A stretch of 64,000 nt of DNA from Burkholderiales bacterium. Its GTDB lineage: Bacteria > Pseudomonadota > Gammaproteobacteria > Burkholderiales > Casimicrobiaceae. The notes below the pieces were generated by a model. It did no database searches. It saw only the letters and a list, made by a program, of their open reading frames with translations, and was not told where the DNA came from. The position numbers and the translations under genes are program-made. The stretch's first letter is position 1, and the number at the start of each line of letters is the position of its first letter. The stretch lies in the NCBI GenBank assembly GCA_016790165.1, contig JAEUPL010000003.1:1-64000 (forward strand). The letters are read 5' to 3'. Positions 14,008 to 23,262 of the stretch are shown piece after piece.

Positions 14008-15276
14008 ATGCCCCCTGACACCCCTACCGTCGCGGCGGCTTCACCCAAGCACATCCGCCTGACCTCGCATTCCAGCGGCTATGGCGCGCGGCAAATCGTC
14101 TGGGATGCCGCCACACCGGCCGAACGCGGTCCAATCGTTGGCACCACGACAACGCGCGCACATCGCAGCGTAATCGGCACCCACAGCGGCTCCTACAGCG
14201 TCTACCGTGCCCTCGCGGTCGCAGCGGGCGCGCTCAAGCGCGACCATCGCGCCGACCTGACCAACACGGCACCAACCGACGAAATCGGGCCTTACCCGCA
14301 GTGGAGCGAACCCGGGCGCATCGTCTCGCTCGACCCCTGGGGCGCGATGGTCGCCCAAGTCTTCGCGGACGATCTGGCTGCCGGCTACGACATTCGCCCC
14401 ACGATCGCGGTAACGAAGGCGCATGTGATCCTGCCTGAGGTGATCGACGCGTTAGCACGTGGCCGTCTGAAGCCGGATGATCGCATCCTGAGTGCGAGCG
14501 GTGCCGCCGTGGTGACCAAGGCAGCCATCGAGCCCGTCTGGTATTTGCCCGGTGTGGCCAAGCGATTTGGCTGCAGCGAGGCCGATCTCCGCCGCGTTCT
14601 GTTCGAGGAAACGGGCGGCATGTACCCGGAGCTCGTCACCCGCTCCGACCTTGAAGTCTTCCTGCCACCGATTGGCGGGCAAACCATTTACATCTTTGGT
14701 AACCCGCGCGATCTTGCGAACCCCAATGTCGAGCTGACTGCTCGCGTGCATGACGAGTGCAACGGCTCGGATGTGTTCGGCTCGGATATCTGCACCTGCC
14801 GCCCGTACCTCACGCATGCAATCGAAGAGTGCATCCAGGGCGCCCAGCGTGGTGGCGTGGGTCTTGTGGCCTACTCGCGCAAGGAAGGCCGCGCGCTCGG
14901 CGAGGTCACCAAGTTCCTCGTCTACAACGCGCGCAAGCGGCAAGTCGGCGGTGACACGGCGGACAAATATTTCGCCCGCACCGAATGCGTCGCCGGTGTG
15001 CAGGACATGCGCTTCCAGGAGCTGATGCCCGACGTGCTGCACTGGCTCGGCATCAAGAAGATTCATCGCCTCGTCTCGATGAGCAACATGAAGTACGACG
15101 CCATCACCGGCTCGGGCATCGAGATCGGCACCCGCGTCAACATCCCCGACGAGTTGATCCCCGCCGACGCGCGAGTCGAGATGGACGCCAAGATCGCCTC
15201 GGGCTACTTCACGCTGGGGCTGGTGCCGGATGCAGACGAACTGAAGATTGCCAAGGGCCGCGGGCTGGGCGAATGA
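14008..15276 (+). CDS. urc1: URC1-type GTP cyclohydrolase II-like protein (uracil catabolism)
   Basis: 422 residues, about twice a plain GTP cyclohydrolase II. An N-terminal domain of roughly 220 residues precedes the cyclohydrolase-like half. The zinc site is conserved: Cys251, Cys262 and Cys264 in HDECNGSDVFGSDICTC. The catalytic loop reads SRKEGRALGE instead of the QEGRGIGL of riboflavin enzymes, so it is not a normal RibA. This architecture is that of URC1 of the URC uracil catabolic route known from Lachancea kluyveri and from bacteria. Its stop overlaps the start of URC4 (ATGA), and uracil phosphoribosyltransferase follows, which is the known URC1-URC4-URC6 set. Confidence 0.9.
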   Translation: MPPDTPTVAAASPKHIRLTSHSSGYGARQIVWDAATPAERGPIVGTTTTRAHRSVIGTHSGSYSVYRALAVAAGALKRDHRADLTNTAPTDEIGPYPQWSEPGRIVSLDPWGAMVAQVFADDLAAGYDIRPTIAVTKAHVILPEVIDALARGRLKPDDRILSASGAAVVTKAAIEPVWYLPGVAKRFGCSEADLRRVLFEETGGMYPELVTRSDLEVFLPPIGGQTIYIFGNPRDLANPNVELTARVHDECNGSDVFGSDICTCRPYLTHAIEECIQGAQRGGVGLVAYSRKEGRALGEVTKFLVYNARKRQVGGDTADKYFARTECVAGVQDMRFQELMPDVLHWLGIKKIHRLVSMSNMKYDAITGSGIEIGTRVNIPDELIPADARVEMDAKIASGYFTLGLVPDADELKIAKGRGLGE

Positions 15277-16532
15277 ACGCAACGGCCGGCGCAAAATCGT
15301 CAACTCCCGCCACTCAGGCAGCGCTGCGTGAGCTGCGCTCGACCACAGCCGTTCGCAAGCGCGCGCATGCACTCCTCGCGCGCGCACGCGCTGGGGAGTC
15401 GACACACTTTTGGGTGGGCGACGACGCTACCCTCGAACGCGCGGCGCAACTGGTTGCCGAGGTGACGCGCGAGCGCTATGGCGACGGCCCGATCCCGTAT
15501 CACAGCCGCTGGCGGCACTTTGAGGCGGGTGGCATTGATCGCCGAAGCGAGCTCGACCGACTGCTGGGCGAAGTCTCCACCCATGAACGCGCACGCACCC
15601 AGATTGACCTAACCGTCGTGAGCGTGCTGCTCGACGCGGGCGCTGGGGCGCACTGGAGTTACACGGAGACTGCGAGCGGACAGCGCTTCGCGCGCTCGGA
15701 GGGCCTTGGCGTTGCGAGTTTCCGCGCCTTCGTCGCGGGGGTGTTCTCGTCCGATCCAGCGCAGCCACTTCGCGCCGATGCAGCGGGACTGCGCGCTGTC
15801 ACTGCGGCCAAGCTGGCAGAGGCGTTTCAGGTCAGCGAAGCCAACCCGCTGATCGGCCTTGAAGGGCGAGTGACGCTACTGCACAGGCTGAGTGATGCGC
15901 TGGCGCGCCAGCCAGCAGTTTTCCCGGCGCCGCATCGACCCAGTGCACTGTTTGACGTCTTGTGCCAAACGGGTCGCGAGACGATCCCCGCTCACGATGT
16001 GCTGGTAGCGCTGCTCGACACGCTTTCCGAAGTCTGGCCCGCGCCGAACCGCTTGGCCGACGGCACCTCGCTCGGAGACTGCTGGCGATTCGCGCCTGCG
16101 CGCGGCGATGGCGTCAGCGACGGCTGGATGCCGTTTCACAAGTTATCGCAGTGGCTCAGCTACTCGCTGCTCGAACCGTTCGAATGGGCTGGCATCACGG
16201 TCGACGGCCTGGATGCGCTGACCGGTTTGCCTGAATACCGAAACGGTGGCCTCCTCCTGGACGCCAACGTGCTGTTGCCCAAGTCACCCGCTACGCTCAG
16301 CACCATCTGGCAGGTCAGCGACGAATTCATCATCGAGTGGCGCGCGCTGACCGTCGCCCTGCTCGACGAGCTGGCACCTCGCGTACGGGGGATCCTCGGC
16401 CGCAGCGACGCCGAAATGCCGCTCGCCTGCGTGCTCGAAGGCGGCACCTGGGCGGCCGGGCGCGTGCTCGCGGCCCGCCTGCGTGGGGGCCTGCCGCCTG
16501 TCCAGCTCGCCAGCGACGCCACCGTTTTTTGA
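15273..16532 (+). CDS. urc4: URC4/Urg3-family protein (DUF1688)
   Basis: 419 residues from ATG 15273, overlapping the URC1 stop by four bases. The sequence has the DUF1688 pattern: AALRELRSTTAVRKRAH near the start, IPYHSRWRHFEAGG around residue 75, GVASFRAFVAGVFSS, FHKLSQWLSYSLLEPFEW in the C-terminal half, and GLPEYRNGGLLLD. The biochemical function is not established; in yeast it is required for growth on uracil by the URC route. No cofactor motif can be seen. Gene order and overlap argue that it acts with URC1 directly. Confidence 0.9.
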   Translation: MNATAGAKSSTPATQAALRELRSTTAVRKRAHALLARARAGESTHFWVGDDATLERAAQLVAEVTRERYGDGPIPYHSRWRHFEAGGIDRRSELDRLLGEVSTHERARTQIDLTVVSVLLDAGAGAHWSYTETASGQRFARSEGLGVASFRAFVAGVFSSDPAQPLRADAAGLRAVTAAKLAEAFQVSEANPLIGLEGRVTLLHRLSDALARQPAVFPAPHRPSALFDVLCQTGRETIPAHDVLVALLDTLSEVWPAPNRLADGTSLGDCWRFAPARGDGVSDGWMPFHKLSQWLSYSLLEPFEWAGITVDGLDALTGLPEYRNGGLLLDANVLLPKSPATLSTIWQVSDEFIIEWRALTVALLDELAPRVRGILGRSDAEMPLACVLEGGTWAAGRVLAARLRGGLPPVQLASDATVF

Positions 16533-16552
16533 ACCTCAACGCGATAACCATC

Positions 16553-21959: not shown

Positions 21960-21990
21960 AGCCGACGATATTGCCCGGAGTTTGATTCGT

Positions 21991-23262
21991 ATGCTCGACC
22001 TGCTGATCACCCACGCCAACCTGCCCGACGGTCGCGCCGACATGAGCGTTGCCGTGCGCGACGGGCGTATTGTCGAGGTCGCGCCACGCATCGACGCGCA
22101 GGCGCACGAGACGATCGACGCCGGCGGCATGCTGCTCACGCCTCACTTCGTCGATCCACACTTTCACATGGACGCCACGTTGAGCTACGGCCTGCCGCGC
22201 GTCAACGAGAGCGGTACCTTGCTGGAAGGCATCGCGCTCTGGGGCGAACTGAAACCGACGCTCACGGCGGATGCGATCATCGAACGCGCGCTGGCCTATT
22301 GCGACTGGGCTGTCGCCAAAGGGCTGCTCGCGATCCGGTCGCACGTGGACACCAGCGACCCGAGCCTGCTGGCGGTCGATGCACTGCTCGAGGTGAAGCG
22401 CCGCGTCGCGCCCTACCTTGACCTGCAGCTCGTCGCGTTCCCGCAGGACGGCGTGCTCAGAACCAGGGGCGGCGTCGACAACCTCAAGCGCGCGCTCGAC
22501 AAGGGTGTTGATGTCGTCGGTGGCATCCCGCACTTCGAGCGAACCATGACCGACGGTGCCGCCAGCGTCAAACTGCTCTGCGAGATCGCGGCTGAGCGCG
22601 GCAAGTTGGTCGACATGCACTGCGACGAAAGCGACGACCCGCTGTCACGCCACATTGAGACGCTCGCCTTCGAAACGCAACGTCTGGGCCTTCACGGCCG
22701 GGTGACGGGTTCGCACTGCACGTCGATGCACTCGATGGACAACTACTATGTCAGCAAGCTGCTGCCGTTGATCGCCGAGAGCCAGGTGAGCGTGGTCGCC
22801 AACCCGCTCATCAACATCACGCTGCAGGGCCGCCACGACAGCTACCCGAAACGCCGCGGCATGACCCGCGTGCCCGAACTCACGACCGCCGGCGTCAACG
22901 TCGCCTTCGGGCACGACTGCGTGATGGACCCGTGGTACAGCCTGGGCTCGGGCGACATGCTCGAGGTGGCGCACATGGGCCTGCATGTCGCGCAGATGAC
23001 CAGCCAGGATGCGATGCGGCGATGCTTTGCGGCCGTGACCACGAACGCGGCGAAGGTGATGCACCTTGAGCGGCATGGTCTCGATGTTGGGTGCGATGCC
23101 AGCTTTGTGCTGTTGCAGGCGCGCGATCCGATTGAGGCGATTCGGTTGCGGGCGACGCGATTGAAGGTATTTCGGCGTGGGCGACTGGTCGCTGAATCGG
23201 CACCGGCGCAAGCCAAACTGTTCGTACATGGCCGCGACCAGCCAGTCTCCTGGATGCGCTGA
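21991..23262 (+). CDS. codA: CodA-like cytosine deaminase (amidohydrolase)
   Basis: 423 residues from ATG 21991 with GGAG 10 bases upstream. Metal-dependent deamination of cytosine or a related base to uracil. Ligands match E. coli CodA: His57 and His59 (PHFHMD), His210 and Glu213 (MHCDES), His242 (GSHCTSMHS) and Asp309 (GHD), plus the FPQDG substrate glutamine and the DPWYSLG loop. The residue after the catalytic Asp is Cys310, where E. coli has Asp314, a position known to tune substrate choice. Downstream of the transporter, it would feed uracil to upp/URC1/URC4. An isoguanine or other aminopyrimidine substrate cannot be excluded. Confidence 0.88.
   Translation: MLDLLITHANLPDGRADMSVAVRDGRIVEVAPRIDAQAHETIDAGGMLLTPHFVDPHFHMDATLSYGLPRVNESGTLLEGIALWGELKPTLTADAIIERALAYCDWAVAKGLLAIRSHVDTSDPSLLAVDALLEVKRRVAPYLDLQLVAFPQDGVLRTRGGVDNLKRALDKGVDVVGGIPHFERTMTDGAASVKLLCEIAAERGKLVDMHCDESDDPLSRHIETLAFETQRLGLHGRVTGSHCTSMHSMDNYYVSKLLPLIAESQVSVVANPLINITLQGRHDSYPKRRGMTRVPELTTAGVNVAFGHDCVMDPWYSLGSGDMLEVAHMGLHVAQMTSQDAMRRCFAAVTTNAAKVMHLERHGLDVGCDASFVLLQARDPIEAIRLRATRLKVFRRGRLVAESAPAQAKLFVHGRDQPVSWMR

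What the first reader, a model, noticed from the sequence alone, without database searches (positions are those of the whole stretch)
14008..23262. Complete URC-type uracil catabolic operon joined to a nucleoside importer and a CodA-like deaminase
URC1 (GTP cyclohydrolase II relative with the zinc cysteines but a changed catalytic loop), URC4 (DUF1688) and upp are followed without a break by a BmpA-type ABC transporter (four genes) and a cytosine deaminase-like enzyme, all on one strand, with ATGA overlaps at URC1/URC4, ATPase/permease 1 and permease 1/permease 2. Established: URC1, URC4 and URC6 form a uracil-degradation route in Lachancea kluyveri distinct from the classical reductive and Rut routes. 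Inference: here uptake, deamination and ring opening are one operon. No urease or urea-handling gene is in the window, so later steps are unknown.
Basis: partly seen in the sequence, partly recalled or inferred. Interest (0 to 1): 0.85.

Follow-up and report, generated by a model that had tools for sequence, protein, structure and literature searches.

The report
Uracil-degradation operon with urea-releasing glycosylase
A bacterial operon, found in the same gene order in beta- and alphaproteobacteria, is predicted to import pyrimidine bases and break uracil down by the little-known URC route, and its unexplained protein URC4 turns out to be a relative of the enzyme that frees queuine from its sugar, so it likely splits ribosylurea into urea and a reusable sugar phosphate.

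The parts
14008..15276 (+). URC1, predicted UTP cyclohydrolase (GTP cyclohydrolase II relative)
   Evidence: NF005536 788 bits; PDB 7eev/7ej3 780 bits over 410 residues; three Cys invariant in 88 of 88
15273..16532 (+). URC4 (DUF1688), predicted N-ribosylurea (5'-phosphate) glycosidase of the Qng1 fold
16553..17182 (+). upp, uracil phosphoribosyltransferase (the only PF14681 match in the genome)
   Evidence: TIGR01091 278 bits; single match in G000
17251..18252 (+). BMP-family substrate-binding protein, predicted nucleobase binder
   Evidence: PF02608 132 bits; nearest solved AtzT (guanine) and 3s99 (adenine); W46, F96, E164, W193, E217, F219 invariant in 34 of 34, window included
18329..19885 (+). 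ABC transporter ATPase with two ATP-binding stretches
   Evidence: PF00005, two stretches
19882..20943 (+). ABC permease 1
   Evidence: PF02653 118 bits
20940..21875 (+). ABC permease 2
   Evidence: PF02653 122 bits
21991..23262 (+). CodA-related amidohydrolase (PRK07572) with Cys310 at the CodA Asp314 position
   Evidence: NF005748 799 bits; alignment to E. coli CodA chains; Cys in 34 of 35 sequences, the other cut short

Best explanation
This is a conserved pyrimidine-catabolic operon in which an ABC importer likely brings in pyrimidine bases, an amidohydrolase would deaminate cytosine-type bases, Upp is predicted to put uracil on a ribose phosphate handle, URC1 likely opens the ring at the UTP level, and URC4, a protein homologous to the queuosine-5'-phosphate glycosylase Qng1, likely cuts the remaining ribosylurea (5'-phosphate) into urea and ribose phosphate. 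Shown here by computation: the genes, their conserved order, the Qng1-type fold and conserved active-site positions of URC4, the Cys variant of the deaminase, urease genes elsewhere in the genome, and no match to RutA or, above cut-off, to dihydropyrimidinase. From the literature (passages): URC1 and URC4 serve uracil breakdown to urea in Lachancea kluyveri, with ribosylurea as URC4 substrate. Inferred: the 5'-phosphate on ribosylurea, glycosidase chemistry, base rather than nucleoside import, kinases taking UMP to UTP, and recycling of ribose 5-phosphate to PRPP, so that ribose phosphate acts as a carrier that is put on by Upp and taken off by URC4.
Against: The window URC4 itself is not hit by PF10343. 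The best reciprocal Pfam E-value, 8.3e-4, is not far from that list's noise (next family 0.0017). A first test with two Qng1 segments alone was not significant (23 of 500, then 206 of 1000 shuffles reached the score; hhalign 15.7 with shuffles up to 22.3). A shared fold does not prove the reaction, and both key Asp are Glu in URC4. The only substrate data are from yeast and secondhand here. The fate of the three-carbon fragment was not sought. In 19 of 19 roomy actinobacterial loci the importer and deaminase are missing, so they are not obligatory. Allophanate hydrolase, dihydropyrimidine dehydrogenase, beta-ureidopropionase and barbiturase were not searched, and the genome is 92% complete.
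Confidence: 0.75

Rival explanations
1. URC4 has the Qng1 fold but acts one step earlier or on an unphosphorylated substrate: it removes ribose (phosphate) from a ring-opened ureidoacrylate ribotide, or only hydrolyses free ribosylurea.
For: The phosphorylation state of the URC1 product was not seen in any call; the literature passages say only ribosylurea. The hhalign match does not fix the leaving group.
Against: Qng1 uses a 5'-monophosphate (passages in PMC11592518), and nine aligned invariant positions of Qng1 are kept or conservatively changed in URC4; which of them bind phosphate was not established here. Yeast URC4 is placed at ribosylurea.
Confidence: 0.2
2. The importer carries nucleosides, and a nucleoside-splitting enzyme elsewhere supplies the bases.
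For: BMP family proteins include nucleoside binders; solved chains 6ya3, BmpD and BmpA also match (37-50 bits; their nucleoside ligands are recalled).
Against: Best solved matches are AtzT (121.6 bits, guanine KD 0.11 uM) and 3s99 (113.3 bits, adenine modelled); chains whose ligands I do not know lie between (Lbp 95 bits, 4p98 72, 2hqb 56). No PF01156 nucleoside hydrolase in G000 or G038. In 13 of 87 loci a phosphorylase-family gene sits inside the transporter set, 12 of 13 with a lipobox pattern (Pfam on one member), as expected if bases are freed outside.
Confidence: 0.25
3. The deaminase is not for cytosine but for a 5-substituted pyrimidine such as 5-methylcytosine, or for isocytosine.
For: Cys replaces CodA Asp314 in all 34 readable sequences, window included; PMC6186785 (Discussion read) reports that this residue decides activity on 5-methylcytosine and is Ser in a 5-methylcytosine deaminase.
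Against: Metal and catalytic residues are those of CodA; thymine from 5-methylcytosine has no obvious use in a uracil route.
Confidence: 0.3
4. The operon is for pyrimidine salvage, not breakdown; URC1 and URC4 make or trim some other nucleotide.
For: upp is the only uracil phosphoribosyltransferase found in the genome, so the operon likely also serves salvage.
Against: URC1/URC4 serve uracil breakdown in yeast, and no other uracil route was recognised here.
Confidence: 0.06

Closest known systems
URC (uracil catabolism) pathway of Lachancea kluyveri and its bacterial gene clusters
   Same: URC1, URC4 and a uracil phosphoribosyltransferase adjacent; route to urea
   Different: Here an ABC importer and a Cys-type CodA relative follow in the same operon; urease rather than the yeast urea amidolyase (urea carboxylase model below cut-off; allophanate hydrolase not searched)
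Queuosine-5'-phosphate N-glycosylase Qng1 (DUF2419, PF10343; PDB 7u07, 7u91, 7ugk)
   Same: Fold over nearly the whole Qng1 chain; invariant Lys, Gln, Thr, Tyr, Trp and acid positions
   Different: About 100 residues longer, both key Asp are Glu, window protein not recognised by PF10343, and linked to uracil genes
UTP cyclohydrolase (PDB 7eev/7ej3, deposited as GTP cyclohydrolase II)
   Same: Near-identical length, 780 bits over 410 residues
   Different: Nothing essential seen; that these entries are the UTP cyclohydrolase of the 2021 paper is recalled
E. coli cytosine deaminase CodA (1k6w) and Klebsiella 5-methylcytosine deaminase (4r85; this entry's identity is recalled)
   Same: Amidohydrolase with the same metal and catalytic residues
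   Different: Cys at the Asp314 position (Asp in CodA; Ser in the 5-methylcytosine enzyme)
AtzT, guanine-binding BMP-family periplasmic protein
   Same: Positions of Phe98, Glu165 and the sandwiching Trp194 conserved
   Different: Asn218 and Asn220, which contact guanine, are Glu217 and Phe219 here in 34 of 34

Membership tests
URC uracil-catabolic operon | URC1 of the PRK07198 type | tested here: met
   NF005536 788 bits, cut-off 403
URC uracil-catabolic operon | URC4 (DUF1688) adjacent | tested here: met
   PF07958 471 bits, cut-off 25, ATGA overlap
URC uracil-catabolic operon | uracil phosphoribosyltransferase adjacent | tested here: met
   TIGR01091 278 bits, cut-off 208
URC uracil-catabolic operon | a way to use urea in the same genome | tested here: met
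   UreC 952 bits, UreA, UreB, UreE, UreG above cut-off on contig C5
URC uracil-catabolic operon | growth on uracil depends on URC1 and URC4 | not testable with these tools
   needs deletion mutants
Qng1 / DUF2419 glycosylase (for URC4) | Qng1 fold | tested here: met
Qng1 / DUF2419 glycosylase (for URC4) | sequence homology to the family | tested here: met
   hhalign E 2.3e-6, 279 columns, controls far below
Qng1 / DUF2419 glycosylase (for URC4) | PF10343 above its gathering score | tested here: not met
   window protein not hit; 17 of 77 relatives hit at E up to 10; among the 20 scanned singly (18 of these 77, 2 from plasmids) only L028 exceeds 25 bits; hence a sister family, not a Qng1
Qng1 / DUF2419 glycosylase (for URC4) | Asp231 and Asp298 | tested here: not met
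   Glu321 and Glu389 in 77 of 77; acid kept, Asp not; the Asp298-Glu389 pairing is by spacing
UTP cyclohydrolase (URC1) | hydrolysis of UTP | not testable with these tools
   only sequence similarity to 7eev/7ej3
CodA cytosine deaminase | HxH, Gln156, His214, Glu217, His246, Asp313 | tested here: met
   all present; the residue list is recalled, partly confirmed
CodA cytosine deaminase | Asp314 | tested here: not met
   Cys310
BMP nucleoside importer | nucleoside binding | not testable with these tools
   sequence points to base binders

The most novel reading that the evidence does not exclude
URC4/DUF1688, in bacteria and fungi alike, is a second branch of the Qng1 glycosylase family that has turned from freeing queuine to freeing urea from N-ribosylurea 5'-phosphate. 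Ribose 5-phosphate is then a reusable handle: Upp loads uracil on it, URC1 dismantles the ring while it is held, URC4 lets urea go, and the sugar phosphate returns to PRPP. Uracil is thus broken without prior reduction or oxidation of the ring.
Probability: 0.65. Interest if true: 0.75.

Novelty: new variant of a known kind. Interest (0 to 1): 0.62.

Why it matters
URC4 is known from yeast genetics (a 2008 paper, seen here only in reference lists) but is still a protein of unknown function in Pfam. Tying it to a solved glycosylase family gives it a reaction, a fold and named residues to mutate, which makes an unexplained step of one of the four known routes for pyrimidine breakdown directly testable. 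It also joins queuine salvage and pyrimidine catabolism by one protein family, and reads an eight-gene block that annotators label piecemeal (GTP cyclohydrolase II, BMP family protein, amidohydrolase) as one predicted nitrogen-scavenging system.

Tried and rejected
Chance or artefact: rejected, gene order is conserved across classes. Rut or reductive pathway as the real uracil route: no RutA; best dihydropyrimidinase match 35 bits in G000 and 101 in G038 against a cut-off of 393. Yeast-like urea amidolyase: best matches are biotin-carboxylase parts, 544 and 545 bits against 1304. Urea genes near URC1 in relatives: among ten neighbours annotated the one hint is a HupE/UreJ_2 family membrane protein (PF13795, cluster c36, 5 of 87 loci); most neighbours were not annotated. 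Riboswitch or other RNA in the operon: none at gathering score, only two tRNAs elsewhere in the window. Promoters and terminators: no clear excess over shuffles. Sequence search of URC4 against PDB chains: no Qng1 hit, by single sequence or profile. Qng1 family genes in 398 genomes of the phylum: none, and no control genome rang, so not informative. Two-segment Qng1 tests: not significant; the later test with 58 full proteins was. Is the Cys a mark of URC linkage alone? No: it is also in six subfamily relatives at 58-81% identity, of which one shows URC1 and two show these permeases within about 1.5 kb, and three show none of the other query genes there; remoter ones have Ser (four), Asp (one) or Asn (two), and one gave no alignment. 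ORF clustering by longest ORFs gave many false genes and was replaced by a codon-usage gene caller. Whether the URC4-Qng1 link is in print: text searches showed no such paper in their listings, but listings are not readings, the library lacks most subscription journals, and neither the 2008 yeast paper nor the Qng1 structure paper is held; the UTP cyclohydrolase paper was not read either.
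Full report
OBSERVATION. The window lies on contig C27 of a 3.76 Mb, 91.9% complete assembly in 41 contigs. The eight genes are present, on one strand, with intact frames and three ATGA overlaps. Family assignments are far above cut-off for URC1, URC4, upp and the deaminase subfamily, and clear for the BMP protein, ATPase and two permeases. 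NCBI's 'putative B6 transporter' models match the transporter parts but all below their cut-offs and were not adopted.

CONSERVATION. A scan with URC1 brought 80 named loci, the best of at least 586, so a sample biased to close relatives. URC4 is found after URC1 in 79 of 80 and upp in 74 of 80. Five of the six loci that lack one or both end within 1.6 kb of URC1; the sixth, L016, has 3.4 kb downstream and still shows no upp. Of 65 loci with at least 9 kb downstream, 19 are actinobacterial by record title and all 19 have only URC1-URC4-upp of the eight. Of the other 46, 19 have all eight genes in order, 13 the core plus deaminase, 8 the core plus transporter, 2 the core plus part of the transporter, and 4 only the core. 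By title many of the 46 are Variovorax, Ramlibacter, Hydrogenophaga and Rhodoferax. A congeneric genome, G038, carries all eight at 78-97% identity. Azospirillum brasilense plasmid ABSP7_p3, an alphaproteobacterial record, has the same eight in the same order, annotated as GTP cyclohydrolase II, URC4/urg3 family protein, upp, BMP family protein, ATP-binding protein, two permeases and amidohydrolase. URC1 occurs on 16 of 72,556 plasmid records at E up to 1e-40. In the order of the window, URC4 is patchy: 7 of 200 genomes, the own one included.

URC1. The closest solved chains are 7eev and 7ej3, deposited as GTP cyclohydrolase II (780 bits over 410 residues). That these are the UTP cyclohydrolase of Zhang and colleagues (ACS Catal 2021) is recalled; I saw only that paper's title in the reference list of PMC12507026, whose introduction cites it for the URC pathway (passages). 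Three cysteines and six tested positions of the loop SRKEGRALGE are invariant in 88 of 88 sequences, window included.

MECHANISM. Qng1 acts on queuosine 5'-monophosphate and frees queuine (passages). In yeast, URC4 is placed at ribosylurea to urea (PMC7530994, passages and one short section), which breaks the same type of bond. If URC1 acts on UTP and loses pyrophosphate as GTP cyclohydrolase II does (recalled chemistry), its product would bear a 5'-monophosphate, which is what a Qng1-type site would expect. Hence the proposal: Upp loads uracil on ribose phosphate, kinases make UTP, URC1 opens and strips the ring, URC4 frees urea and ribose 5-phosphate. The reaction of URC4, the phosphate and the recycling of the sugar are inference. 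The fate of the three-carbon fragment (3-hydroxypropionate in yeast) was not traced.

UREA AND OTHER ROUTES. Urease alpha is on contig C5 at 952 bits (cut-off 680) and also in G038. UreA, UreB, UreE and UreG beside it are above their cut-offs; the frames I read by position as UreF, UreD and UreJ gave no NCBIfam match. RutA: none in either genome, while two control genomes are above cut-off. Dihydropyrimidinase: nothing near cut-off. Urea carboxylase: below cut-off. upp: one match in G000, in this operon. PF01156 nucleoside hydrolase: none in either; other nucleoside-splitting families, dihydropyrimidine dehydrogenase, beta-ureidopropionase, barbiturase and allophanate hydrolase were not searched.

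IMPORTER. The best solved matches of the BMP protein are AtzT (6pi5, 121.6 bits) and Brucella 3s99 (113.3). Lbp (7x0r, 95), 4p98 (72) and 2hqb (56), whose ligands I do not know, come next; 6ya3-type, BmpD and BmpA chains reach 37-50 bits. AtzT holds guanine (KD 0.11 uM) and binds cytosine and uracil only at 0.8 and 1.6 mM; 3s99 has adenine modelled (passages in PMC6834077). The window protein keeps the AtzT Phe98, Glu165 and Trp194 positions and has Glu217 and Phe219 in place of the guanine-contacting Asn218 and Asn220; these, and W46, are invariant in 34 of 34 (residue pairing read by eye from the alignment). A base binder of changed specificity fits best. In 13 of the 87 loci clustered, a gene of one cluster sits between the BMP and ATPase genes; one member is PNP_UDP_1 by Pfam, and 12 of 13 show a lipobox pattern, which suggests base release outside the membrane in those relatives.

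DEAMINASE. It belongs to PRK07572 (799 bits, cut-off 438) rather than to the PRK09230 cytosine deaminase model (435 bits, cut-off 483). CodA metal and catalytic residues are kept; Asp314 is Cys310 in the window and in 33 relatives, one further relative being cut short, and in the Azospirillum enzyme. PMC6186785 (Discussion read) says this residue governs activity on 5-methylcytosine and is Ser in a 5-methylcytosine deaminase. The Cys marks the subfamily, not URC linkage alone. Substrate is therefore open between cytosine and 5-substituted or iso forms.

VERDICT. The operon is a new variant of a known kind. The interest lies in URC4, which gains a fold, a family and a testable reaction.

Noticed in passing
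L131 6228-10149 (Rhizobium leguminosarum plasmid CP050552.1): A URC1 homologue (NF005536, 560 bits) with no URC4 or upp match in the 19 kb read, in a row with a RibD-reductase-like protein (below those models' cut-offs), an unassigned protein and a Rieske protein: possibly a biosynthetic use of UTP ring opening.
   Followed up: partly
window 8531-11057: Arsenosugar-type cluster: radical SAM ArsS (TIGR04167, 443 bits) with TIGR04283 and TIGR04282 glycosyltransferases.
   Followed up: partly
L007 14411-15367 and 12 similar loci: Phosphorylase-family (PNP_UDP_1 in the member tested) lipoprotein-like gene between the BMP and ATPase genes of the URC-linked transporter.
   Followed up: partly
L028 14397-15521 and four similar loci: A HupE/UreJ_2 family membrane protein (PF13795, 173 bits) between upp and the deaminase gene in L028; possibly a nickel or urease link.
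   Followed up: no
window 23470-25044, minus strand: P-loop ATPase of the Sll1717 family (NF047389, 194 bits) right after the operon on the other strand.
   Followed up: no
window 28169-30630, minus strand: Three ORFs that read like a branched-chain amino acid or urea type ABC transporter; only the first was scanned, an ATPase nearest UrtE (234 bits, below the cut-off of 286).
   Followed up: no
16 plasmid records, for example NZ_CP012917.1 and NC_016907.1: URC1 genes on plasmids of Azospirillum, Cupriavidus, Rhizobium, Gordonia and Pseudoroseomonas; URC4 and upp beside it in 4 of the 5 regions read.
   Followed up: partly
L069 4458-5627: A uracil/xanthine permease family gene (PF00860) three called genes upstream of URC1 in Antrihabitans, on the other strand, a possible substitute importer.
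   Followed up: no
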